DNA of 64,000 nucleotides from Oceanidesulfovibrio marinus (GTDB lineage Bacteria > Desulfobacterota > Desulfovibrionia > Desulfovibrionales > Desulfovibrionaceae): contig NZ_CP039543.1 in the NCBI RefSeq assembly GCF_013085545.1, forward strand, positions 2,418,001-2,482,000. Reading direction: 5' to 3'. Shown here in pieces: positions 39,586 through 52,005 of the stretch. The notes beneath the pieces were generated by a model that did not search any database, was not told the origin of the DNA, and saw only the letters and a program-made list of their open reading frames with translations. Every line of letters begins with the position of its first letter. Position 1 is the first letter of the stretch. Made by a program: the position numbers and the translations under genes.

Positions 39586-39662
39586 GCGCCAGTAGCTCAG
39601 TAGGATAGAGCAGCGGCCTTCTAAGCCGCCGGCCGGGGGTTCGAATCCTCCCTGGCGCGCCA
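39586..39662 (+). tRNA. tRNA-Arg (anticodon TCT)
   Basis: 77 bases with CCA. Acceptor GCGCCAG/CTGGCGC, anticodon arm GCGGC-CTTCTAA-GCCGC, T-arm with GGTTCGAATCC. Its 3' end is the attachment site of the island that follows. Confidence 0.96.
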
Positions 39663-39663
39663 A
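39649..39663 (+). repeat. attL of the tRNA-Arg island
   Basis: TCCCTGGCGCGCCAA, the 3' end of tRNA-Arg plus one base, is repeated exactly at 51991-52005. Confidence 0.9.
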
Positions 39664-39839: not shown

Positions 39840-41051
39840 TTGCTCACGGACGCCGCCGCAAAGAACGCCAAACCCAAGGCCAAGGTTTACCGCCTAGCCG
39901 ATTCGCATGGCCTCTGCCTTGAGATAAAGCCGTCAGGCTCCAAGCACTGGCGATACCGCTATCGCTTCCAGGGCAAGGCAAACATGCTCAGTCTTGGCGA
40001 GTATCCCCTTGTCTCGCTCGCCAAAGCCCGCAAAAAGTGCGATGAGGCGCGAGAACTCCTGAGCGATGGCATAGACCCATCCCAAGAGCGAAAAGCCGAG
40101 AAGAAGGAACGCGAGCGCCAAGCCCGAACCTTCAAGGATGTGGGCGAAGAGTGGGTTGCCAAGAAATCACAGAAATGGACGGCGCTCACCATAGAGCGCA
40201 ATAGCGGCATACTCACTCGGTACCTCTACCCTGAGATCGGCGATACTCCCATTGCGGATATCGAGCCGCCGGAACTCCTGACCGCTCTGCGCAAGATGGA
40301 GTCGCGCGGCATCCATGAGTCTGCCAAGCGCGCCCACCAGCTTGCCGGCTCCATTCTTGGGTATGGCGTTGCCAGTGGATATTGCACCCGCAATTCAGCA
40401 ACCGACCTGAAAGGGGCGCTCACCCCACCCGACGTGACGCATTTCGCCAGCATCACGGACCCACGAAATGTAGCCCCCTTACTCCGTTCGATTGACGGCT
40501 ATTCAGGCCAACTCGTCACCAAGTGCGCACTGCGCCTTGCCCCTCTCGTTTTCGCCCGGCCCGGTGAGCTTCGCCATGCGGAATGGTTGGAGATCGACTT
40601 TGACGCTGCCGAGTGGCGCATACCGGCAGAGAAGATGAAAAAGCGCCGGCCCCATATCGTGCCGCTCTCCCGCCAGGCACTCGATATCCTGCAAGAACTC
40701 CATCACCTGACCGGCGAAGGCAAATACCTGTTCCCATCCTTACGCACGACATCACGCCCCATCAGCGAGAACACTATCAATGCCGCCTTGCGTCGTATGG
40801 GCTTCGACAAGTCCGAGATGACCGGCCACGGCTTCCGCTCCATGGCAAGTACGATCCTACACGAACAGGGCTGGCCATCGGATGTGGTCGAGCGTCAACT
40901 TGCCCACATTGAAGGCAATTCGGTCAAGGCGGCATACAACTATGCCGAGCACCTACCCGAGCGCCGGCGCATGATGCAGTCATGGGCGGATTATCTGGAT
41001 GGCCTGAAAGCTGGCGCGAGGGTGACGCCCCTCCGCTCAAAGAGCGGGTAG
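39840..41051 (+). CDS. P4-type tyrosine-recombinase integrase
   Basis: 403 residues from a TTG at 39840; GGAGG lies 9 nt upstream. N-terminal DUF4102/SAM-like arm-binding part (LTDAAAKNAKPKAKVYRLADSHGLCLEIKPSGSKHW). Catalytic domain has Arg in FARPGELRHAEW (~240), HGFRSMAST (His-x-x-Arg, ~330) and the nucleophile Tyr in AAYNYAEHL (~364). It integrates and excises the island at the adjacent tRNA-Arg. Confidence 0.96.
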   Translation: MLTDAAAKNAKPKAKVYRLADSHGLCLEIKPSGSKHWRYRYRFQGKANMLSLGEYPLVSLAKARKKCDEARELLSDGIDPSQERKAEKKERERQARTFKDVGEEWVAKKSQKWTALTIERNSGILTRYLYPEIGDTPIADIEPPELLTALRKMESRGIHESAKRAHQLAGSILGYGVASGYCTRNSATDLKGALTPPDVTHFASITDPRNVAPLLRSIDGYSGQLVTKCALRLAPLVFARPGELRHAEWLEIDFDAAEWRIPAEKMKKRRPHIVPLSRQALDILQELHHLTGEGKYLFPSLRTTSRPISENTINAALRRMGFDKSEMTGHGFRSMASTILHEQGWPSDVVERQLAHIEGNSVKAAYNYAEHLPERRRMMQSWADYLDGLKAGARVTPLRSKSG

Positions 41052-41080
41052 TAAAAAACGCGTTTATTGGAGGATGTTTT

Positions 41081-41863
41081 TTGAGATTCTTTTTTGGCAT
41101 CGAAGATTCCACGCACAACATCAAAGGACTTTCACAGGATGATAATCCGGAAGTTGCCGCGTGGAGCTGGGAGCTTGAATCCTGGCTACCTGGCAAGAAA
41201 CCAACAGAGGGTTGGCATGTACTTGAAGCTGACTTGGAAACTGCCAAAACCTGGATATCCGGGCCACGAGATCAGACAGCTTTCGATTCCATACAACCAC
41301 GTTTAAAGCATATCGACTCTATTTCCTTCAAGGAACCACCCTATTGCAAAGATTTATTCAGACTAGCCTCCCTCGCAATTGCAGAGCACATAAAGATTAC
41401 ATTGCACTTAAAACATCGACCAACTTTCATTCCAACATACGGGCGATATGTGGATGAAGATAATAAAAATTCACTTACATTAAACGATTGCCCAGAGAGC
41501 AAAATTGAATCTTATCAACAGAATATTTCAGGGAAAAATATTGAAGAATTATTACTTTCTGCTGCGAGGGCATACCTAGAAGAAAAAAATAAAAGTAAAG
41601 CGTCAAGAGATGTTACTAAAGCATTAGGACTTCATGGCATTAAATCTCCAAGCGACCTCTTGCTGCTCCTAGAACATGAGATGTACTGCTTTGCTTATGA
41701 AACAACATCTGAACATGACGTAAGACAGGAGAGCCTTTCATTCCTTATGAATAAATACGAGATACCGTCTTACGATGCCATATACCAGCGGATAGCCCGA
41801 GCTCAGAAAAAACATGGTCACACAGGAATGCTCCCCCCTAGATGGCCTGATGTTTCCAAGTGA
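41081..41863 (+). CDS. Unknown island protein between integrase and AlpA
   Basis: 260 residues if begun at the TTG at 41081, supported by GGAGG (41069-41073) 7 nt upstream; other starts would overlap the integrase gene. The N-terminal third is GC-normal; the rest is AT-rich and Lys/Asn/Ser-rich (about 130-200). Helical, no transmembrane span, and no nuclease, ATPase or kinase motif that I can see. No family recognised. Its position between int and alpA is a usual cargo slot in P4-like islands, so a defence role is possible but untested. Confidence 0.7.
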   Translation: MRFFFGIEDSTHNIKGLSQDDNPEVAAWSWELESWLPGKKPTEGWHVLEADLETAKTWISGPRDQTAFDSIQPRLKHIDSISFKEPPYCKDLFRLASLAIAEHIKITLHLKHRPTFIPTYGRYVDEDNKNSLTLNDCPESKIESYQQNISGKNIEELLLSAARAYLEEKNKSKASRDVTKALGLHGIKSPSDLLLLLEHEMYCFAYETTSEHDVRQESLSFLMNKYEIPSYDAIYQRIARAQKKHGHTGMLPPRWPDVSK

Positions 41864-41998: not shown

Positions 41999-42205
41999 AT
42001 GACGGCTTTTGAAACATTCTTTGTGGCGGGGAAGCTCTACAGACTGCCGGCAGTGCTCGATGGCCTGGGAATCAGCAAGAGCTCATGGTGGGCCGGCGTC
42101 AAGGACGGACGCTTCCCCAAGCCGGTCAAGCTTGGCTCACGTACCACGGCATGGCGCGGTGAGGATTTGCTAGCGCTCACCCAAAACGGCGCTGAAGTGA
42201 AATAG
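41999..42205 (+). CDS. AlpA-family excisionase/transcription regulator
   Basis: 68 residues with GGAG 10 nt upstream of ATG. MerR-like winged helix: LYRLPAVLDGLGISKSSWWAGVKDGRFPKPVKLGSRTTAWRGEDLLAL. In P4-type islands AlpA activates integrase or acts in excision. It lies 1 bp before the primase gene, so both are probably co-expressed. Confidence 0.92.
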   Translation: MTAFETFFVAGKLYRLPAVLDGLGISKSSWWAGVKDGRFPKPVKLGSRTTAWRGEDLLALTQNGAEVK

Positions 42206-42206
42206 T

Positions 42207-44873
42207 ATGCAGGCGGCAATGCAGAAGGAACGCATCGGAAATGGCTTGATGCGTGCCACCCTCACATATGCTTCCAAGGATTGGCCGGTATTTCCGGCCA
42301 ATCCGCAGAACAAGAGGCCATTCACATCTAACGGCTTCAAGGGTGCGACAACGGACCCGGATACGATCCGCACATGGTGGCAGCGGTGGCCGAATGCCTT
42401 GATAGGTGCTCCAACCGGCGAGGTCATGGGGTGCTGGGTCTTGGATGTGGATGCACTCGGCAACGGCCACAAGGCGGATGGCCTAGCCGCCCTGGCATGG
42501 CTCGAAAAAGAGAACGCCCCCTTACAAACCGGACTCGAACAGCGTACCGGCGGCGGTGGCCGGCAACTCTTCTTCGCCTGGGATGCATCACGACCAATCC
42601 GCAATTCGCGGGGCAACCTTCCTGCCGGAATCGATGTGCGAGGGGATGGCGGATACGTCATCCTTCCACCTTCCGGACATCCCTCCGGTGGCCGGTACGA
42701 ATGGCTCTCTCAAGGAGGACCCGCTAGCGCTCCGGCTTGGTTGCTCGACATTATTGACCCGCCACGCAGCAAGCACGGAATCGTGGTCATGGATTCGAGC
42801 GCAACGGACGAGACCACGCCATACGGCAAGCAGGCGCTCGAAGCCGAAGCGGGCAAGGTGGCTCGCGCCGTGGAAGGTGAACGCGATAACGTGTTGAACA
42901 CTGCCGCATTCCGCATCGGGCAGCTTGTGGCCGGAAACGAAATAGACCAACAGGAGGCAGAAGACGAACTCACCCGCGCCGGGCTCCGGTGTGGACTCTC
43001 TGAACGCGAAGTACGGAACAAGTTCACCCGCCCCGGCGGAGACTCGCCTTTTGAATGTGGGATGCGCGAACCACGAACTGCGCCGGCAGGTGGAACGCCT
43101 TACAAGCCAAGTCCAACCGTTGGAGTAGACGACAAAACAGATGACCAGGGCTACCAACACAAGCGTATAGTCCCCCCGCCTGCCCCTTTCCCTGTTGAAG
43201 TATTCCCGCCTGCGATTCGCGCCGTCATCGAACAAGCTGAACGCGCCTTTGGTGTACCCTCAAGCATCCCGAGTGCGGCAATGCTTATGCTATCTGCGGC
43301 CTGTATTGGTCGCACACGGGGAATTCTCATCAAGCAAAGCTGGTGCGAGTACGCAAACCTGTTCATGGCTCTTGTGGCTCGCTCCGGCATGGGCAAATCG
43401 CCATGCGTCAATGCCTTCTTCCGATCCATCCACCGGGTGGAAAAGCGGCTACAGGCCGAATACGATGAAGCCATGGCGCAATATTGGGCCGATAAGACGG
43501 CGTATGACCAAGCCCCAAAGAAAGAACGCGGTCAACCCCCTGAAGAACCGCAGCGCAAACACCTGTATGTTGATGATGCGACCATCGAGGCCGTTGCCGA
43601 TGCCCTTCTGATGAGCGGTAGCCGTGGCGTGTTGTGGTATCGTGATGAGTTGGCCGGAATGCTCAAGGACTTCGACAAGTACGGTACTGGCGACAAAGGC
43701 GGCACAATGACCCGGCTGCTATCCGCATACGATTCAAGCTCCTGGAAGCTCACCAGAAAGACAAACAAGCAGACGATCTACATACCACAAGCCACGGTGA
43801 GCTTGTTTGGTGGGATTCAGGACGGTGTGTTGCCGCATATCTTCACCGACCTGGACGCCGTTTCCGGCTTCCTGCCGCGCATTCTCTTTGTCCGCGCTGA
43901 ACAGGATGCACCGCCGCTATGGACGGAAGAAGGCTTTGAAGACATCCACCGCCAAACCATAGACCAGATTACCGAGCGGCTGTTGTCCTATGAAATGACA
44001 GACGAGCCAAGCGAGAAAGCCCGAATTATTGGCGTGGCTGGCGATGCAAAAAAAGCCTTCATTGCTTGGCATGACAAGCTCGCCTATGAACAATGGCTTA
44101 GCGATGCTGACCACAAGGAGGCATTGCCAAAGCTCAGAGGGCAGGCCCTTCGATTGGCTCTCAACCTCCACTGCCTATGGGCTGCTGCCGAAGATGGCAA
44201 CGAATTGGAGCCTGTGCAACTCGACACAATGAATCGGGCTCTTACCTTGGCGGAATGGTTCAAGGGCGAGTTGGCCAGCGTATGGGCGATTATTCGACAA
44301 TCACAAGGTGTAACAACTGCCTCGCCTTTAGATAAGCGAGTTGCCGCTGCAATCATCACGCTCAAGGCTGAAGTGGCCGGCGGAATGCTGCCTACGGCTC
44401 GAATCACTGAGGCGGTGAATGACGGCATGGACAAACGCTACCAAGTAGACCCGCGTGCAGTGGGCAAGGCGTACTCAAAGCTAGGGCTTCACTCGCAGCA
44501 TCTACCCGACAAGAAAGGCCGTGGTGTGGTTCTCACCCCGGACGACATCGAGCGCCTTGAAGGATTACTCCCTAAGCAGACGTCCGAAACGTCCCACATG
44601 TCCCAGAGCCAGCAACAGCGCGGCACCTCAACCGGGACATGTGGATTAACGGACGTCCAACATGTCCAGCCCAAAGACGGCCCCCGGACGTTTCGGACAT
44701 GTGAGCATGAAGACGTCCAGACCAAAAACACCCATGGCGCAAGGGATACGGACATATCGGACGTGTCGGACGTTTCTCCACGCGATTTAGAACACAAGCA
44801 TGATGTCTTGAGCCGCCTTATGGAAACGGAGGACGCAGCACTTTGGGATGGCCCCGCAGAGGTGGAGATATGA
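42207..44873 (+). CDS. Bifunctional primase-polymerase/DUF3987 replication protein
   Basis: 888 residues; ATG at 42207 or 42219. N-terminal prim-pol domain (~15-180): WPVFPANPQNKRPF, catalytic acidic motif LDVD (~79-82), RTGGGGRQLFF. A linker follows, then a DUF3987 helicase-like domain (~330-720) with P-loop-like ARSGMGKS (~390), VLWYRDELAGMLKDFD, and RLLSAYDSSSW. The last ~110 residues are low-complexity and coincide with a cluster of short DNA repeats. It likely initiates replication of the excised island. Confidence 0.9.
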   Translation: MQAAMQKERIGNGLMRATLTYASKDWPVFPANPQNKRPFTSNGFKGATTDPDTIRTWWQRWPNALIGAPTGEVMGCWVLDVDALGNGHKADGLAALAWLEKENAPLQTGLEQRTGGGGRQLFFAWDASRPIRNSRGNLPAGIDVRGDGGYVILPPSGHPSGGRYEWLSQGGPASAPAWLLDIIDPPRSKHGIVVMDSSATDETTPYGKQALEAEAGKVARAVEGERDNVLNTAAFRIGQLVAGNEIDQQEAEDELTRAGLRCGLSEREVRNKFTRPGGDSPFECGMREPRTAPAGGTPYKPSPTVGVDDKTDDQGYQHKRIVPPPAPFPVEVFPPAIRAVIEQAERAFGVPSSIPSAAMLMLSAACIGRTRGILIKQSWCEYANLFMALVARSGMGKSPCVNAFFRSIHRVEKRLQAEYDEAMAQYWADKTAYDQAPKKERGQPPEEPQRKHLYVDDATIEAVADALLMSGSRGVLWYRDELAGMLKDFDKYGTGDKGGTMTRLLSAYDSSSWKLTRKTNKQTIYIPQATVSLFGGIQDGVLPHIFTDLDAVSGFLPRILFVRAEQDAPPLWTEEGFEDIHRQTIDQITERLLSYEMTDEPSEKARIIGVAGDAKKAFIAWHDKLAYEQWLSDADHKEALPKLRGQALRLALNLHCLWAAAEDGNELEPVQLDTMNRALTLAEWFKGELASVWAIIRQSQGVTTASPLDKRVAAAIITLKAEVAGGMLPTARITEAVNDGMDKRYQVDPRAVGKAYSKLGLHSQHLPDKKGRGVVLTPDDIERLEGLLPKQTSETSHMSQSQQQRGTSTGTCGLTDVQHVQPKDGPRTFRTCEHEDVQTKNTHGARDTDISDVSDVSPRDLEHKHDVLSRLMETEDAALWDGPAEVEI
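44580..44776. repeat. Iteron-like repeat cluster in the 3' end of the primase gene
   Basis: Short motifs GGACGT, GGACATGT and their reverse complements recur at least ten times in 200 bp. GGACGTTTCGGACATGTG (44686) has a near reverse complement at 44580 (ACGTCCGAAACGTCCCACAT). Further copies at 44634, 44651, 44660 and 44750-44775. Candidate replication origin (inference). Confidence 0.5.
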
Positions 44874-45175
44874 GCCTCGTGGATGACCTCCACAAACACG
44901 GCGTTGCCGTCCACCTCAAAGGTGGGCGGTTACGCCTTACCGGCTTGGACAGGGTGAAGAAGTCTGAGGCCGAAGCCGTGCTTGTCCTTGCCAAGGCGAA
45001 CAAGCACGCCCTGGTGGAAGAACTCCAGGAAAACGCCCTCATGCGTGAGTATCCCCACCTAGCCCCCTGTCCGGACTACGGCGGCGCTTGGCTCTATCGC
45101 TCCTGGTGTACGGAGAGGTGCGGGAAGGTTGATACGTGCCGAGCATGGCCGGCCCGGCTGCAAACCGGAACATAG
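44870..45175 (+). CDS. Small protein with TubC-like docking domain
   Basis: 101 residues; the ATG overlaps the primase stop (ATGA) and GGTGGAG precedes it. The first ~55 residues (LVDDLHKHGVAVHLKGGRLRLTGLDRV.. ANKHALVEELQ) have the alternating pattern of the TubC N-terminal docking fold. The C-terminal part has four Cys (CPDYGGAWLYRSWCTERCGKVDTC), perhaps a metal site. The coupling suggests a partner of the primase. Confidence 0.7.
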   Translation: MSLVDDLHKHGVAVHLKGGRLRLTGLDRVKKSEAEAVLVLAKANKHALVEELQENALMREYPHLAPCPDYGGAWLYRSWCTERCGKVDTCRAWPARLQTGT

Positions 45176-45779
45176 CGGGACACTTTCCGTATTTTTGAGC
45201 ATATACGCGCGAGAAGACCGCGTCCTACATAGCTGATTCGACGTGAAATATTGTTCGCGAACCGGGACAATGCGAGACAAAACAGACCTCGAAAAACCAC
45301 CCCTGTTTTTTCGAGAAACTGCACACGAGACTTTGCAACCGGTCCTTGGGGCAAGAGCTGTGAACTTTGACATGCCCCTCTCCCCTGGGGGGTATCAAAA
45401 GTCTAGGGCTCTTCCTTCAAAAACCGGTGCCACTCTCAATTTTTCGCTCTGCCAAAATGAGGGGTGGGGGGGGTAATTACGCGCTTTGAGCCTTTTCGGT
45501 GTGTATTAACTGTAATTCTGAGAGCGCTCTGCGTCCGGTCACAACACAGCGAACATACTAAAATTATTGGGAAATATCTTAGCCGCGCTAGATACCGTAA
45601 CCGCCATGCCTTTTCGCGAGTCACTCGGCAAAACGCGGTAGCGGGCAAGAAGTGGAATACCTTTGGCCGGCTTGAAGCAGGCAGGAAGTTTTTGTCTCAC
45701 CAAATACCCACCAAAACACTTTTGTCTCAAATAGATTAGAACGTGAGACAAAAGTGCCGTTATGTCTTACGGGTGAGAC
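45176..45779. other. Non-coding region between primase unit and fic
   Basis: About 600 bp, AT-rich with a G-rich tract near 45,465. No supported gene. The right end has the TTTTGTCTCA repeats (45690-45756). Confidence 0.5.
45689..45756. repeat. TTTTGTCTCA repeat set near the fic 3' end
   Basis: Direct copies of TTTTGTCTCA at 45690 and 45720 (30 bp apart), and the perfect inverted pair CACTTTTGTCTCA (45717-45729) / TGAGACAAAAGTG (45744-45756). A related GAGACAAAA lies at 45274. May be operator sites or a weak terminator for fic. Confidence 0.55.
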
Positions 45780-46907
45780 TCAGAAGACATTATGCCCTTC
45801 CGCAACGTTCAGTAGGTCTCGAAAGGCATAGATAGCCGGACGCCGCCCGCTCCCTGCTTGAATCTGAAGCAGAATGTTTTCACCTCGAAGAAGGGTCAAA
45901 ATACGGTTGGCCGTCGGCTTTGGAATACCTGAGCTTTGAATGAATGATGTCGTTGAAAAAATGGGGCTATCAAATATGAAATCCACAGCCCGAATAGAAT
46001 GCTGGGAGTGTGTTAGATCGACTACCTGGTGCTTTACACGTTCATAGAGAGCGAGGACTTCACGGGCTTTTCGTTCGTTCTCACCGGCTTGTTCACGAAT
46101 TCCACGCAGGAAAAAAATGCACCACTCCGTCCAGTCGTTTTCCCGAGAGACTGCTCTGAGTTTTTCTTGATAATCTTCGCGGTTTGCCTCCAGATAGGCA
46201 CTCATATAAAAATCAGGGCTCGCGAGAAGCTTACGTTGATAAAGGAACAACGGAATCAGCATCCGCCCCAAACGGCCATTTCCATCTTTAAATGGATGAA
46301 TCGCCTCAAACTCCACATGAAGAATAGCTAACTGAACCAGAATATCCAGCTCATCAGTACTGCTCAAATAACGCTCCCACTCATCCATGCTGGACTGAAG
46401 GTGTTCAGGAGCAACAGGAATAAAGCTGGCTTCTTCAATTGAGCAGCCTTTGGGACCAATCCAATTTTGGTCAGTTCTATAATTTCCAGGAGATTTATCT
46501 CTCCCCCTCACTCCTTGCATAAGTATATGGTGAGCTGCCCTTAAAATCTGTTGTGAAAGAGGTCGTTCTCTCAATTCATGCGTACAAGCCATCATGGCCT
46601 TGCGGTAGTTCAACACCTCCTCAGCGTCATCACGACGCGGCTGGGTTATAGATTCTGACTGCCTACCTGCTTCAATCTCTAGAACTTCTCCAATTGTAAC
46701 ATGTGTTCCCTCAATCTTAGAAGAGAGTACCGCTTCCTGGGTAGTGAGAGGAGAGAGCAATATATGGGCATTGGGAATTGCAGACAACAACCCATCATAG
46801 CGGGCTAAGCTTGCATTGGCAGGCCCAATCAGAGGTGTAAGCCTGCGCCAATCAATTTCTTTTGGAGGGAATTCGCCAAGATGATAATAAACTGGTGGCA
46901 TTGTCAT
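45780..46907 (-). CDS. Fic-domain AMP-transferase-type protein (class II)
   Basis: 375 residues from the ATG at 46907 (GGAG 11 nt upstream; the length then matches Fic_N-Fic proteins). Starts at 47003 or 47015 would add ~35 residues without a ribosome site. The N-terminal inhibitory motif SSKIEG (~62-67) fits S/T-x-x-x-E-G/N. The catalytic loop HPFKDGNGRLGR (~204) is complete. A winged helix at the C-terminus (IQSSGIPKPTANRILTLLRGENIL) suggests DNA or regulator contact. It probably AMPylates a target. The opposite orientation in the island suggests separate control. Confidence 0.92.
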   Translation of the reverse strand: MTMPPVYYHLGEFPPKEIDWRRLTPLIGPANASLARYDGLLSAIPNAHILLSPLTTQEAVLSSKIEGTHVTIGEVLEIEAGRQSESITQPRRDDAEEVLNYRKAMMACTHELRERPLSQQILRAAHHILMQGVRGRDKSPGNYRTDQNWIGPKGCSIEEASFIPVAPEHLQSSMDEWERYLSSTDELDILVQLAILHVEFEAIHPFKDGNGRLGRMLIPLFLYQRKLLASPDFYMSAYLEANREDYQEKLRAVSRENDWTEWCIFFLRGIREQAGENERKAREVLALYERVKHQVVDLTHSQHSIRAVDFIFDSPIFSTTSFIQSSGIPKPTANRILTLLRGENILLQIQAGSGRRPAIYAFRDLLNVAEGHNVF

Positions 46908-47474
46908 CAGTGCTGCTTCTCCAGTTGAGTCCAGCGCAATATTTAGATTTTCCTGGCAATCCCCAGAAGAATGAGTCTTCATGAAGAACTTGCTTTGGTT
47001 CATGCCATACGACAAATGAACATCGCATAATGTTTTGAGCCCTCTGGCAAATCAAACCCTTTAGAGCAGAATGGCGTATGATTTCGCGAGTGGCAACACG
47101 CTAAGCATGAATACGACTAATTTTTCGATTACCTGCTCTCGTTCCCCGGCTCCTGCCACGCATTAAGCAGGAAAGAACAGATGCCTTGCCAACTCGTAAG
47201 CGCCCTTCTACCCCAAAGTGCCACCAGAAAGATATTCCCGCTGTAGCATATCGACCTCGCCGTGGTTGGCGTTCAAAGCATGAGATTACCCGCCGCGCCC
47301 TCTCCATTGACCTGAATCATCGCGTCATCTATCAATCTGTGGCGGTTTGCCCCAATATTTCATGCTTGGATTCCCTTGCTGAATTCGGCACGGCTAATCC
47401 CTGGGCTGCTTCGTGCCTGACCTGTCCAGACTGCCGACTGCACACCCCTAACCGCCGCAAGGCTTGATTGATAC
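46908..47474. other. Divergent region between fic and Type III methyltransferase
   Basis: About 570 bp. Contains the candidate small ORF 47186-47467; otherwise AT-richer DNA that should hold promoters for fic (minus) and the restriction genes (plus). No boxes assigned. Confidence 0.4.
47186..47467 (+). CDS. Candidate small Cys-rich basic protein before the methyltransferase
   Basis: 93 residues from a TTG, with AGGAAAG 10 nt upstream, ending 7 bp before the methyltransferase ATG. Very basic N-terminus (PTRKRPSTPKCHQKD, RPRRGWRSKHEITRR), then CPNISC and CLTCPDC, which could bind a metal. No family recognised. Spacing suggests it could be the first gene of the restriction operon, but the start codon is weak. 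Confidence 0.35.
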   Translation: MPTRKRPSTPKCHQKDIPAVAYRPRRGWRSKHEITRRALSIDLNHRVIYQSVAVCPNISCLDSLAEFGTANPWAASCLTCPDCRLHTPNRRKA

Positions 47475-49088
47475 ATGCCCACGCTCCATTGGTTGACACG
47501 CGAAAAGGACCTGGCTGCTTCCGCCCAAGCGCCCTACCGGCTACTTGAGGCGGTCGAGACATACGGCGATGATCCGCATACCGAGAACATGTTGATCCAG
47601 GGGGATAACCTGGACGGCTTGAAAGCGCTCTTGCCCTTTTATGCAGGTAAGGTGAAGTGCGTATATGTTGACCCCCCATTTAATACTGGCCAGGCATTTG
47701 AACACTATGACGACAACATAGAGCACTCAATTTGGCTAGGAATGATGTACGCAAGATTTGAGCTAATCAGGGACTTACTCTCCGTGTCTGGAACATTAGT
47801 AGTCCACCTAGATGATGAAGAATTAGCATATTGTACTATTATATTAGACGAAATATTTGGCAGAGTAAACAGAATCAACCTTTGTACTTTTAGGCAGGGA
47901 GCTGCCGTCGGCCATAAATCCATCAACCCTGGGGTCGTGACTGTAACCAACTATCTACTTATATATGCCAAGGACAAATTAAGCTCCTGGGTTCCTAACA
48001 AGGTTTACACCAAAAGGGATAGAGACAAGCGCTATTCATCCTACATAGAAAACTATGATGCTAACTATAAGGATTGGAAGCTAATTCCCCTTTCTCAGGC
48101 TTTAGCGAAAGAGCTTGGCATCAAAAAATCTAACTTAAAAAAAGAGCTTGGTGATAACTATGAAGAAGTAACAAACAATTTTGTTATGAAAAATGCACAT
48201 CGCGTTGTTCAGTCTGTTTCTCCAGCTTATAACAGCGTCGGTCAAGGGACACGCAATATAATAGATTTATCAAAACAGCATCCTGAAACACTTTTCCTCC
48301 AATCCCGTGAAGGTTATTCGGACATTTACCTTAAGGATGGGAAAAGATGGCTTTTTTATAAAAGCAAATTAAAAGAGATTGATGGGGAATTAGTGTCAGG
48401 AGAACCATTAACAAACTTATGGGACGATCTACTATCAAACAATTTGCACAATGAAGGCGGAGTCAAGTTTCCCAAAGGGAAAAAGCCTGAATCCTTAATA
48501 CAGAGAGTCTTAAGTCTTTTTACTGAGCCAGGAGAAGTAGTTCTAGATTCGTTTCTTGGTTCTGGAACGACTGCTGCTGTTGCCCACAAAATGAATCGAA
48601 AGTACATTGGTATTGAAAACGGTGAACATGCTGCGAGTTTATGCATTCCTCGTTTGCAACGTGTAATTGAAGGCGAACAGGGGGGTATTTCGAAGGCCGT
48701 CAACTGGCAAGGCGGGGGATCGTTCCGCTTCTACCGCTTGGGCGAGCCGGTCTTTGACGAAGCCGGGCGAATCAATCCCGCAATCCGTTTCCCTGCCCTG
48801 GCTGCTCATATCTGGTTCTGCGAGGTCAGAAGCCCTTACACTGGCACGCCGGATTCTCCGCTTCTGGGCATCCATGACGGCGTAGCCTATTACCTACTGT
48901 TCAATGGCATCCTCGGAGACAAGACAATTGACGGCGGCAACGTGCTGACCACGCCCATTTTGAAGAACTTGCCGGAACACGATGGCCCGAAAGTCATCTA
49001 CGGCGAAGGCTGCCGGTTTGGCGAAGCACGGCTCAAGAAAGAGCGCATTACGTTCAAGCATATTCCATACGACATCAAGGCCCGGTAG
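47475..49088 (+). CDS. Type III restriction-modification DNA methyltransferase (Mod)
   Basis: 537 residues. Beta-class N6-adenine methyltransferase order: catalytic DPPFN (66-70), WLGMMYARFELIRDLLSVSGTLVVHLDDEE, then after ~250 residues the SAM motif DSFLGSGTTAAVAHKMNRKYIGIE (~356). The intervening part is the target-recognition region; its DNA (about 47,830-48,620) is clearly more AT-rich than both flanks. The C-terminal ~150 residues return to high GC. It methylates one strand of an asymmetric site and pairs with the Res subunit 3 bp downstream. Confidence 0.94.
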   Translation: MPTLHWLTREKDLAASAQAPYRLLEAVETYGDDPHTENMLIQGDNLDGLKALLPFYAGKVKCVYVDPPFNTGQAFEHYDDNIEHSIWLGMMYARFELIRDLLSVSGTLVVHLDDEELAYCTIILDEIFGRVNRINLCTFRQGAAVGHKSINPGVVTVTNYLLIYAKDKLSSWVPNKVYTKRDRDKRYSSYIENYDANYKDWKLIPLSQALAKELGIKKSNLKKELGDNYEEVTNNFVMKNAHRVVQSVSPAYNSVGQGTRNIIDLSKQHPETLFLQSREGYSDIYLKDGKRWLFYKSKLKEIDGELVSGEPLTNLWDDLLSNNLHNEGGVKFPKGKKPESLIQRVLSLFTEPGEVVLDSFLGSGTTAAVAHKMNRKYIGIENGEHAASLCIPRLQRVIEGEQGGISKAVNWQGGGSFRFYRLGEPVFDEAGRINPAIRFPALAAHIWFCEVRSPYTGTPDSPLLGIHDGVAYYLLFNGILGDKTIDGGNVLTTPILKNLPEHDGPKVIYGEGCRFGEARLKKERITFKHIPYDIKAR

Positions 49089-49091
49089 CCC

Positions 49092-51728
49092 ATGTTCCAG
49101 CTCAAGACGTACCAGCACGAAGCATTGAAGGCCCTGGAGACGTACTTAGAAAACGCCCGCCTTTCCGGCGATCCGAAAAAGGCGTTTGAAGAATTCATAG
49201 CGGCCCATCCAACAGACACGGGACAACAGAGCTACCTTATTCGGCGTGGCATGGACGGCGTGCCGTATGTGTGTCTGCGTTTGCCCACGGGTGGCGGCAA
49301 GACCGTACTTGCCTCGCATTCTATCGAGGTCGCTGCCAGGGCATATCTTGAGCAGGAATACCCGGTGGTGCTGTGGCTGGTCCCCACGAACACGATTCGC
49401 GAACAGACTATCGAAGCGCTCAAGCAGAATGACCACCCCTACCGTGAAGCGATAGACAATGCTTTTGATGGTCGCGTCTCTGTCTTCGATATTGATGAAG
49501 TAACGCAGATCAGACCCAAGGACCTGGAAGACAAAGTAAGCGTCATCGTCGGAACACTCCAGACTCTTCGTGTTAAAAAGACTGAAGAGAGGCGAATCTA
49601 CGCCCACAACGAAAACTTCGAGCCACATTTCGCCAAAATTCCTTCGGGTATGCCAGGACTGGAGAAAGCGGAAGACGGCACCATAAAGTTTTCCTTCGCC
49701 AATATTCTGCACTATCATCGCCCGCTCATCATCATGGATGAGGCGCACAAAGCCACCACCTCCCTTTCCGCAGAGACTGTTGAACGCATCAACCCATCCT
49801 GCGTTATCGAGTTCACGGCTACGCCCATTACGGGCAATGTATTGTACCGAGTGACGCCTACCGAGTTGAAAGCGGAAGAAATGGTCAAGCTGCCCTTCAT
49901 GCTGACCGAGCATGAGAACTGGCGCAACGCCGTGAACAGGGCGGTGACTGAGCGCCGGGAGCTGGAAGCACTCGCCACAGGAGATGCCAACTATATCCGG
50001 CCCATTGCCCTGATACAGGCGGAGCCCAAAGACGGTGAAGCAACCGTCGAAGTCATTAAAGCGCACCTCATGGAAAATGAGAATGTCGCAGAATCCTCAA
50101 TCGCTATCGCCACAGGCAACCAACGCGAGTTGGACGGCATCAACCTGTACGACAAGCGTTGTCCGATCAAATACGTCATCACCATCCAGGCCCTAAAAGA
50201 AGGTTGGGATTGTCCTTTTGCGTATGTCTTCTGTTCAGCGCAGCGTGTCCGCTCCGCCGTGGACATCGAACAGTTGCTTGGCCGGGTCATGCGCATGCCC
50301 TACGCCAAGAGACGGCAGATCGAGGAATTGAACAAGGCGTATGCCCATGTCATTTCACCCGGATTTGCCGAAGCTGCTCAGGAAATGCATGACAAGCTCA
50401 TCAACATGGGCTTTGAAGACGAAGAAGCGCTCGACAACATCTATCCGATGCAAGGAACCTTTGAGGGTTTTGAAGACACCCCTCTTGGAAGGGTCTTGCA
50501 GGAGCCGCCGGCCTTGGTGCTTGAAGCGGAAGCAATGCCCGACCTGAGCAGGGTGAACAGTTTTGACGGGGATCGGCTCCACATCCAAGAAGTTGATGGC
50601 AAGTATCAAATACGAATTGCCGGGGATATCTCCCAAGACCAGGTTGAAGAACTCGTAAGCGCGTTTCCCGAATCGGAGCAACCAAAGACCCGCAGAACCA
50701 TCGAAATCCATCGTTACAAGTTTCAACGGGAACTGCCCCCGTATGAACAAGGGGTGGGATTCGCCGTGCCGCTTTTGGGCGTCATGGTCGAAGGCGATCT
50801 GGAGCTAGCAAGCCCGGATTTGTGTTTGGAACTGCACGGCTGGGATTTGCTCGACTATCCTGCCCAATTCGAAGGCAATGAGTTCGTTTACAACGAAGAA
50901 TCCAGGACGTTTGAATTCGATATCAAGGGCAACAAGGTCGAGTATTCGCTTGCGGATGAAACACCGATTTATCAACGCGGCTACCTGAGCGACAGGTGGG
51001 ACGAACCGCGCCTTGTGCGTTGGCTGGACAAAGAGCTTCACAAAATGGGCGAGGGAGCCGAGTTCCGCCAGGAAGTCATGCTCGAATTCATACGCCGTTG
51101 CGTGGCTTCTCTACTAAACTCAGGCGACTTTGATATTCTTGCGCTGGTCCGGGCGAAGTTCCTTCTTGCAAAAGCTCTCTTCGAGAAGATTCGCCGGTAT
51201 CGGCAACAGGCATACGCGAGGGGATTTCAGGCCACCTTGCTTGAGGGTGGGGCAACGGTCGAAACGAGCTTTTCATTCAGCTTTGATTTCAGGAATAGCC
51301 CCTATCCTTCTGCTGGCGAGTCCTATCGAGGGGCATACAGATTCAAGAAGCATTATTACGGGAATGATCGTATCCGGGACCTGAAGGACGGCTCTGAGGA
51401 ATTCCACTGTGCCCAAGCCATCGACGCCGCAAAAGAGGTCAAGCATTGGGTCCGGAACCTGCCTTGGGGCAAAGAGTTTTCTTTCAGGCTGCCGACCTCA
51501 ACAGATTTTTTCTATCCGGACTTTGTTGCCGAGCTTGAAGACGGACGGCTCTTAGCGGTGGAGTACAAAGGCAGGCATATCCAGGACACTGCCGACACTC
51601 GCGAAAAGGACAACATCGGCAAGCTCTGGGAAGCCAAGAGCGGCGGACGATGCCTTTTCCTGCTTGGGGTGAATGAAGATGAAGCGGGGCGAGATATTTT
51701 CGCTCAGATTCAAGCGAAGTTGAGTTGA
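49092..51728 (+). CDS. Type III restriction endonuclease subunit (Res), helicase-nuclease
   Basis: 878 residues. Superfamily 2 motifs: I LPTGGGKT (64-71), Ia WLVPTNTIREQT, II MDEAHK (~215-220), III EFTATP, and VI VDIEQLLGRVMRMPYAKRR. A PD-(D/E)xK-type nuclease at the C-terminus: YPDFVAELEDGRLLAVEYKGR (~807-826). With Mod it forms the complex that cleaves unmodified DNA after ATP-driven communication between two sites. All motifs intact. Confidence 0.94.
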   Translation: MFQLKTYQHEALKALETYLENARLSGDPKKAFEEFIAAHPTDTGQQSYLIRRGMDGVPYVCLRLPTGGGKTVLASHSIEVAARAYLEQEYPVVLWLVPTNTIREQTIEALKQNDHPYREAIDNAFDGRVSVFDIDEVTQIRPKDLEDKVSVIVGTLQTLRVKKTEERRIYAHNENFEPHFAKIPSGMPGLEKAEDGTIKFSFANILHYHRPLIIMDEAHKATTSLSAETVERINPSCVIEFTATPITGNVLYRVTPTELKAEEMVKLPFMLTEHENWRNAVNRAVTERRELEALATGDANYIRPIALIQAEPKDGEATVEVIKAHLMENENVAESSIAIATGNQRELDGINLYDKRCPIKYVITIQALKEGWDCPFAYVFCSAQRVRSAVDIEQLLGRVMRMPYAKRRQIEELNKAYAHVISPGFAEAAQEMHDKLINMGFEDEEALDNIYPMQGTFEGFEDTPLGRVLQEPPALVLEAEAMPDLSRVNSFDGDRLHIQEVDGKYQIRIAGDISQDQVEELVSAFPESEQPKTRRTIEIHRYKFQRELPPYEQGVGFAVPLLGVMVEGDLELASPDLCLELHGWDLLDYPAQFEGNEFVYNEESRTFEFDIKGNKVEYSLADETPIYQRGYLSDRWDEPRLVRWLDKELHKMGEGAEFRQEVMLEFIRRCVASLLNSGDFDILALVRAKFLLAKALFEKIRRYRQQAYARGFQATLLEGGATVETSFSFSFDFRNSPYPSAGESYRGAYRFKKHYYGNDRIRDLKDGSEEFHCAQAIDAAKEVKHWVRNLPWGKEFSFRLPTSTDFFYPDFVAELEDGRLLAVEYKGRHIQDTADTREKDNIGKLWEAKSGGRCLFLLGVNEDEAGRDIFAQIQAKLS

Positions 51729-51990: not shown

Positions 51991-52005
51991 TCCCTGGCGC
52001 GCCAA
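51991..52005 (+). repeat. attR of the tRNA-Arg island
   Basis: TCCCTGGCGCGCCAA, identical to the tRNA-Arg 3' end at 39649. Confidence 0.9.

What the first reader, a model, noticed from the sequence alone, without database searches (positions are those of the whole stretch)
44580..44776. Iteron-like DNA repeats embedded in the primase 3' end
The tail of the primase gene encodes low-complexity protein but packs about ten GGACGT/GGACATGT motifs in both orientations, with a long inverted pair (44580 and 44686). P4-like elements replicate from repeat-containing origins recognised by their own primase-helicase, so this may be the island origin inside its initiator gene.
Basis: partly seen in the sequence, partly recalled or inferred. 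Interest (0 to 1): 0.6.

Follow-up and report, generated by a model that had tools for sequence, protein, structure and literature searches.

The report
Replication origin inside a primase gene
The end of this mobile island's primase-helicase gene doubles as a cluster of short DNA repeats, most likely the island's own replication origin, and many related genes in several bacterial phyla carry similar clusters, built from different words, at or near the same place.

Summary
The repeats are real: 13 GGACRT sites in 194 bp (44580-44773), in both orientations and mostly 9 bp apart, against at most 5 per 200 bp in 400 kb of the same genome. They lie in the coding tail of a PrimPol-DUF3987 primase-helicase, just after a predicted winged-helix domain, in a tail predicted disordered. 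They are not a by-product of the peptide: 2000 random synonymous recodings give 2.0 +/- 1.3 sites (maximum 7), and the word sits in four strand/frame combinations. In 38 of 54 DUF3987 loci the 3' end (-400 to +300 of the stop) has a significant repeat cluster, usually of another word, against 3 of 54 for a stretch further upstream; in a second, hand-picked set 8 of 16 against 2 of 16. Arrays lie inside the gene, across the stop or after it. SaPI/PICI and SCCmec initiators likewise bind iterons beside their own gene. Best reading: the island's iteron origin, embedded in its initiator gene. 'P4-like' does not fit the primase type. Neither binding nor replication was tested, and no AT-rich tract lies in the array.

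The parts
39649..39663 (+). attL core TCCCTGGCGCGCCAA at the 3' end of tRNA-Arg(tct) 39586-39662
   Evidence: ARAGORN; exact 15-bp match to 51991-52005
39840..41051 (+). tyrosine integrase
   Evidence: PF13356, PF22022, PF00589; NCBIfam NF007246 matched below its cut-off
40982..41863 (+). ORF of unknown function between integrase and alpA (as listed; the true start is probably further in)
   Evidence: no Pfam, NCBIfam or PHROGs match at E 0.001
41999..42205 (+). AlpA-type regulator
   Evidence: PF05930 E 1.6e-9 for 42002-42202; start and stop read
42207..44873 (+). primase-helicase, 888 aa: Prim-Pol residues 19-178, DUF3987 helicase 351-693 with Walker A-like ARSGMGKSP
   Evidence: PF09250 E 1.1e-38, PF13148 E 1.7e-51; PHROGs helicase and primase families; model residues 334-695 align with MCM ATPases, best Z 11.9, rmsd 4.0 A
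44304..44567 (+). predicted winged-helix domain, residues about 700-787: candidate iteron reader
   Evidence: AlphaFold2: helix 707-718, then E-H-H-E-E-H to 787; block pLDDT 67-84 over 711-790, 55 over 701-710; winged-helix proteins among Foldseek hits but at E above 0.1, so weak
44578..44775 (.). iteron array: 13 GGACRT(NT) sites; triplets at 44580/44589/44598 (-) and 44750/44759/44768 (+); the encoded tail (residues 790-888) is predicted disordered
44870..45175 (+). small ORF whose ATG overlaps the primase stop (ATGA)
   Evidence: no Pfam, NCBIfam or PHROGs match
45176..45779 (.). about 600 bp with no assigned gene; holds the most AT-rich 40-bp stretches near the array (70% AT at 45543-45582 and 45714-45753): possible unwinding region
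   Evidence: role inferred only
51991..52005 (+). attR core TCCCTGGCGCGCCAA, right end of the island

Best explanation
The segment is the iteron part of the island's replication origin, written into the disordered C-terminal coding tail of its own initiator. Proposed mechanism: after integrase and AlpA excise the 12.3-kb island from the tRNA-Arg site, the primase-helicase is made; its C-terminal winged-helix domain binds the 9-bp GGACRTNT repeats in both orientations; several monomers assemble so that helicase rings load facing opposite ways; they open nearby DNA, perhaps the AT-richer stretch downstream, and the fused Prim-Pol domain primes synthesis. Shown here: the array, its DNA-level nature, the domains, and recurrence of arrays at the 3' end of related genes. 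Inferred: excision, binding by the winged helix, helicase loading, the melting site, and origin function itself.
For: Density and genome-wide specificity of the sites. Thirteen sites against 2.0 +/- 1.3 in 2000 synonymous recodings of the same peptide. Of 26 loci with at least four coding sites, 23 use three or more strand/frame classes. Significant clusters at the 3' end in 38 of 54 loci against 3 of 54 for a same-sized stretch 900-1600 bp before the stop, and 8 of 16 against 2 of 16 in plasmid and phage records, the eight coming from Actinomycetota, Bacillota, Cyanobacteriota and Bacteroidota. Same-strand neighbour spacing is 9 bp in 119 of 187 cases over 36 loci (no shuffle null was run for spacing). 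Words differ, but 24 of 35 consensus words hold GAC or GTC, against a mean of 7.5 and maximum of 17 for random 10-mers in 200 draws (the 35 are partly related). Arrays wholly or mostly after the stop in L065, L066, L072, L073, L076, L077, L082 and L096 show that coding is incidental; between the close relatives L049 and L050 the stop codon moved by 24 nt while the sites beyond it stayed. Predicted winged helix before the array and an MCM-like ATPase model. Winged-helix identity predicts word similarity among 17 loci (r 0.61; partial with helicase held constant 0.64; Mantel p 2e-4). Precedent: SaPI Rep and SCCmec Cch2 recognise iterons beside their own gene through the C-terminal domain (passages of PMC7581432), and PICI pri-rep-ori segments drive plasmid replication (passages of PMC6092414).
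Against: No binding or replication data. The array is 58% GC with no AT-rich tract inside it, while PICI origins are described as two iteron sets flanking an AT-rich region. Sixteen of 54 loci and 8 of 16 records show no significant cluster, including all three enterobacterial YfjI genes examined (K-12 CP4-57, L134, L135). Of the 38, at least L084, L090 and L099 look scattered rather than array-like. The winged-helix/word correlation rests mainly on close relatives: with one member per cluster (12 loci) r is 0.08 (p 0.27) and only the partial, 0.35 (p 0.006), remains. The winged helix is also the domain nearest the array, so joint inheritance could explain the link. The AlphaFold model is of middling confidence (mean pLDDT 60.6).
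Confidence: 0.76

Rival explanations
1. The array binds the primase-helicase but serves copy control or autoregulation (an incompatibility site or an operator), and initiation happens elsewhere, for example in the 45176-45779 region.
For: The AT-richest stretches and a separate TTTTGTCTCA cluster lie in 45176-45779, not in the array; many iteron plasmids have control iterons apart from the origin (recalled).
Against: No second set of the same word lies close downstream: the next GGACRT is at 48320. In relatives the array can have the mirror layout expected of an origin, for example three direct then three inverted copies in L073 and L082.
Confidence: 0.13
2. A protein-level feature: a low-complexity tail with tripeptide repeats, the DNA words being a by-product.
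For: The tail contains short repeats such as DISDVSDVS, and 9 bp is three codons.
Against: Synonymous recoding did not recreate the array (maximum 7 sites in 2000 recodings, against 13); sites fall in several frames and on both strands; in a number of relatives the arrays lie past the stop codon; the tail is predicted disordered.
Confidence: 0.03
3. Sites for another protein of the island: AlpA, the integrase, or the probable type III restriction-modification system at 47475-51728.
For: All three are encoded on the island, and type III enzymes use short asymmetric sites in opposite orientation (recalled).
Against: Arrays recur tied to the 3' end of DUF3987 genes with different words, also on plasmids whose listed neighbouring genes differ (I did not score neighbours systematically). 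Integrase arm-type sites are more plausibly the TGTGAGTAC pairs at the island ends.
Confidence: 0.05

Closest known systems
SaPI / PICI replication modules (pri-rep-ori)
   Same: Primase and initiator (sometimes fused), then iterons beside the 3' end of the rep gene, on integrating islands (passages of PMC6092414; PMC7581432).
   Different: PICI iterons are described as immediately 3' of the gene, in two sets around an AT-rich region; here they are inside the coding tail and GC-rich, and the helicase is DUF3987 fused to an AEP Prim-Pol.
SCCmec Cch2 putative origin
   Different: AAGTG iterons in the intergenic region; a separate polymerase/primase (CCPol-MP).
Lambdoid ori in the O gene
   Same: Iterons lie inside the coding sequence of the initiator; two extra iterons add 13 residues (PMC7466680 passages).
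   Different: O is an origin-binding protein without helicase or primase domains (recalled); its iterons are mid-gene next to an AT-rich tract. Here they are in the 3' tail, and between relatives they slide across the stop codon.
PICMI islands of Vibrionaceae
   Same: int, often a small gene, alpA, and prim with DUF3987; deleting prim lowers the number of circular or concatemeric copies (PMC10803314 passages).
   Different: The PICMI prototype sits at fis and has six genes; this island is at tRNA-Arg and carries Fic and probable type III R-M genes. The passages I saw describe no mapped origin for PICMI.
pRN1 plasmid replicon
   Same: AEP primase-helicase with a C-terminal winged helix; origin just downstream of the gene (PMC4234260 passages).
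   Different: Its origin is a stem-loop of about 100 nt and is stated not to have the iteron structure.
Satellite P4 (alpha, ori1, crr, ori2)
   Same: One primase-helicase initiator with a C-terminal origin-binding domain and iterons; ori2 lies inside alpha (recalled, from no call).
   Different: Bacterial, TOPRIM-type primase; the type I iterons are not in the gene tail (recalled).

Membership tests
Iteron-type origin | Clustered short repeats at regular spacing, beyond chance | tested here: met
   13 sites, 9-bp phase, control maximum 5 per 200 bp
Iteron-type origin | Cognate initiator binds the repeats | not testable with these tools
   Only indirect: word/winged-helix covariation, weakened after collapsing clusters
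Iteron-type origin | AT-rich unwinding region next to the iterons | tested here: inconclusive
   None inside the array (58% GC); 70% AT stretches begin about 770 and 940 bp downstream
Iteron-type origin | Supports autonomous replication | not testable with these tools
   Needs an experiment
PICI/SaPI rep-ori module | Iterons immediately 3' of the rep gene, two sets around an AT-rich region | tested here: not met
   In the window the array is inside the gene and GC-rich; the relative L066 does show two halves around AT-rich DNA after the stop
PICMI | int, alpA and DUF3987/DUF5906 prim co-located | tested here: met
PICMI | Integrated downstream of fis | tested here: not met
   15-bp core at tRNA-Arg
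P4-like satellite | TOPRIM-type primase-helicase (alpha) | tested here: not met
   Prim-Pol plus DUF3987; no TOPRIM match in Pfam at E 0.001
MCM-like AAA+ initiator helicase with C-terminal winged helix | MCM-type AAA+ fold followed by a winged helix | tested here: inconclusive
   Best Z 11.9 (rmsd 4.0) to an MCM ATPase over 334-695; rows that reach residue 777 have rmsd 7-18 A. Foldseek best E 0.004; only PDB sequence match E 0.77; model mean pLDDT 60.6

The most novel reading that the evidence does not exclude
Across several bacterial phyla, DUF3987 (YfjI-type, MCM-like) initiator helicases carry their own cognate origin as a movable 3'-end cassette: a winged-helix domain followed by 9-bp, GAC-core iterons that can lie in the disordered coding tail, across the stop, or after it. 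Word and winged helix change together, so the origin-recognition code of the whole family can be read from sequence.
Probability: 0.47. Interest if true: 0.78.

Novelty: new variant of a known kind. Interest (0 to 1): 0.62.

Why it matters
DUF3987 is still a domain of unknown function in Pfam and has only been predicted to be a helicase of mobile elements (PMC5862659 passages). If the reading is right, many satellites, islands and plasmids with such genes gain a predicted origin beside the gene, the initiator's DNA-binding domain is named, and incompatibility between elements could be forecast from the repeat word. A gene tail that must keep coding sense and an origin at once, with the origin sliding over the stop codon between relatives, is also a clear natural case of overlapping functions.

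Tried and rejected
Protein-repeat explanation: rejected. P4-like membership: rejected on primase type. Chance cluster: rejected with the degenerate and double words, though a strict 6-mer count alone would not do it. A clean recognition code from winged-helix/word covariation held only in part: the plain correlation vanished when near relatives were collapsed to 12 loci. A sliding-window scan peaked at residues 740-779 (r 0.65) but also rose at 580-639 (r 0.44-0.45), so linkage with the array is not excluded. A sequence profile against PDB chains gave one match at E 0.77; Foldseek gave no hit at E 0.001 or better. A P4 alpha domain is not among the rows shown, which is no evidence either way. 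Literature: nine searches; none of the titles and abstract openings listed (listings are capped) describes iterons or an origin for DUF3987/YfjI genes. The library lacks most subscription journals, and of six papers I saw only the passages found by term and of PMC7145576 passages on PLE replication.

How the sets were made. Left out of the 54: repeated fetches of one place and a near-identical copy (L067), fragments or contig-end cuts (L060, L061, L063, L069, L086, L087, L091, L092, L095), the Prim-Pol relatives L011-L025 (most with other helicases; L011-L023 were scanned), L123, and matches for which no locus was fetched. The 54 include the window, E. coli K-12 yfjI, and near-duplicates (L049/L050/L051, L054/L064, L057/L068). 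For L047, L049-L051, L053, L057 and L064 I shortened the match that sets the reading frame, because several profile matches ran through stop codons. In the shortest genes the control stretch lies partly or wholly upstream of the open frame; two of the three control positives (L062, L068) are such cases, the third is L070. The 16 records were picked by me from the hit lists for spread of taxa, not at random; L127 runs off its record. In L126, L128 and L138 the cluster begins 350-390 bp before the stop, near the edge of the tested stretch, and L125 just makes p 0.02. The motif models (39 loci, p <= 0.03) were learned from the arrays they count, so the relatives' counts are favoured; those 12 relatives were chosen by me from the 26 loci with at least four coding sites. 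The window's GGACRT word was also chosen after seeing the array.

Full report
Observation. The 3' end of the ORF 42207-44873 holds 13 exact GGACRT sites in 194 bp, 7 on + and 6 on -. They form 9-bp-phased runs: a triplet on - at 44580/44589/44598, a triplet on + at 44750/44759/44768, pairs at 44653/44662 (-) and 44686/44695 (+), and singles at 44635 and 44651 (+) and 44713 (-). In 400 kb of control sequence from the same chromosome no 200-bp stretch holds more than 5 such sites, and the double word GGACRTNTCGGACRTNT occurs only here, 4 times in 4.76 Mb. Counted as one strict 6-mer the cluster is less extreme: two of 20 control stretches also reach 7 copies.

Setting. The island runs from the 3' end of tRNA-Arg (15-bp core at 39649-39663) to the same core at 51991-52005. 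Order: tyrosine integrase, unknown ORF, AlpA, primase-helicase, a small ORF overlapping the primase stop, a Fic protein on the other strand, and a DNA methylase with a ResIII-type helicase, probably a type III restriction system. The primase-helicase joins a Prim-Pol domain to a DUF3987 domain. An AlphaFold2 model (mean pLDDT 60.6) has a winged-helix-like domain at about 707-787 and a disordered tail 790-888; the array is in the DNA of that tail. Residues 334-695 align with MCM ATPases at Z up to 11.9 (rmsd 4.0 A); rows that reach into the winged helix have rmsd 7-18 A. Foldseek's E-values are poor (best 0.004), so the MCM likeness is a lead, not a proof.

DNA, not protein. Two thousand random synonymous recodings of the tail peptide give 2.0 +/- 1.3 GGACRT sites, maximum 7; the real tail has 13. 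The sites occupy four strand/frame combinations. The same holds for relatives: 23 of 26 loci with at least four coding sites use three or more combinations, and each of 12 relatives I chose for the test exceeds all 300 of its recodings, with the caution that their motif models were learned from the same DNA.

Relatives. The protein matched in 45 of 149 genomes of the family at E 0.001, most matches being partial. Their 3' ends showed arrays of other words, among them ACCGTCGG, AACGCCAC, CTGTTGGA, AGGTGTCA, ACGTCAC, GTGACA, ATTCGCAA and ATGGACA. Scoring -400 to +300 around the stop of 54 DUF3987 loci against 100 shuffles each, 38 were significant at p <= 0.02; a same-sized stretch 1600-900 bp before the stop was significant in 3 of 54. 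At least three of the 38 (L084, L090, L099) look scattered rather than array-like, and the 54 hold some near-duplicates. In 16 hand-picked plasmid and phage records the figures were 8 and 2; the eight come from Actinomycetota, Bacillota, Cyanobacteriota and Bacteroidota. They include a Streptomyces plasmid with eight TGACAGAA copies starting at the stop codon and a Tsukamurella plasmid with five GGACAGAA copies across the stop. The three enterobacterial YfjI genes examined (K-12 and two plasmids) have none.

Architecture. Over 36 loci, 119 of 187 same-strand neighbour spacings of 6-30 bp are exactly 9 bp (no shuffle null was run for this number). Several arrays are mirror images, three copies then three inverted copies about 30 bp on (L073, L082), as would suit loading two helicase rings facing opposite ways. 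Location slides: inside the gene (the window; L031, L033, L035, L036, L037, L058, L059), across the stop (L034, L040, L049, L053, L101), or after it (L066, L072, L073, L076, L077, L082) (for the window the motif model also counts two weaker matches past the stop, at 44945 and 45065). In the close relatives L049 and L050 the stop codon differs by 24 nt while the sites beyond it remain. In Prim-Pol proteins with other helicases, arrays sit in the linker between domains (L017, L018, L021, L023). Consensus words hold GAC or GTC in 24 of 35 loci, against a mean of 7.5 for random 10-mers; the loci are partly related.

Who reads the repeats. Among 17 close relatives, similarity of the repeat word follows identity of the winged helix (r 0.61) better than identity of the helicase (r 0.31); partial correlations are 0.64 and -0.37. 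L033 and L036 share 86% of the helicase but 62% of the winged helix and differ in word; L033 and L037 share only 61% of the helicase but 76% of the winged helix and have the same word. Against this: with one member per cluster (12 loci) the plain correlation is 0.08 (p 0.27) and only the partial, 0.35 (p 0.006), remains. The winged helix is the neighbour of the array, so joint transfer is a confounder; a sliding-window scan cannot separate the two.

Comparison (all papers seen as passages found by term, not read whole). SaPI and PICI origins lie just 3' of the rep gene as iterons in two sets around an AT-rich region, and pri-rep-ori segments drive plasmid replication (PMC6092414). SCCmec Cch2 binds direct repeats beside its gene through its C-terminal domain (PMC7581432). 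Lambdoid origins are iterons in the middle of the initiator gene O (PMC7466680). pRN1 has a related primase-helicase plan but a stem-loop origin (PMC4234260). PICMI islands share int, alpA and prim (DUF3987), and deleting prim lowers copy number (PMC10803314). DUF3987 was predicted to be a helicase for mobile-element replication (PMC5862659). So the principle is known. New here, as far as the listings of nine searches of this open-access library show, are iteron arrays as candidate origins for the DUF3987 family and their sliding position into the coding tail.

Verdict. Most likely the island's iteron origin, embedded in its initiator gene. The DNA-level nature and the recurrence at the 3' end of related genes are shown; binding and origin function are inferred. 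Main gaps: no AT-rich tract in the array, a covariation signal that rests mostly on close relatives, and no experiment.

Noticed in passing
window 45690-45753: Three TTTTGTCTCA words (two +, one -) between the small ORF and the Fic gene, out of 5 in the whole genome; an inverted pair CACTTTTGTCTCA / TGAGACAAAAGTG lies there. Could be a second protein-binding set or a terminator.
   Followed up: partly
window 39775, 39787 and 51907, 51919: TGTGAGTAC in 12-bp-spaced pairs just inside both ends of the island and nowhere else in the window: probable arm-type integrase or excisionase sites.
   Followed up: partly
L017, L018, L021, L023: Prim-Pol proteins joined to other helicases carry dense CGTCAACA or CGTCAGCA arrays in the linker between primase and helicase domains, a second place where an origin-like array is hidden in coding DNA.
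   Followed up: partly
window 42207-44873, Prim-Pol motif RTGGGGRQLFF: Where my pattern (which allowed only His or Gln) found this motif, 8 of 11 loci have His (such as RTPSGGLHYLF) and 3 have Gln: the window, L013 and L014; 7 of the 18 loci scanned gave no match. Effect on priming unknown.
   Followed up: partly
window 45780-51728: Island cargo: a Fic/DOC protein (45780-47015, -) and a DNA methylase plus ResIII helicase pair (47475-51728, +), probably type III restriction-modification.
   Followed up: no
L130 and L127, stretch 900-1600 bp before the stop: L130 (Allocoleopsis plasmid) has nine CTTTGTGA copies well inside its DUF3987 gene and L127 (Salinibacter plasmid, frame runs off the record) seven CTCCAC: clusters elsewhere in the gene, against a simple 3'-end rule.
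   Followed up: no
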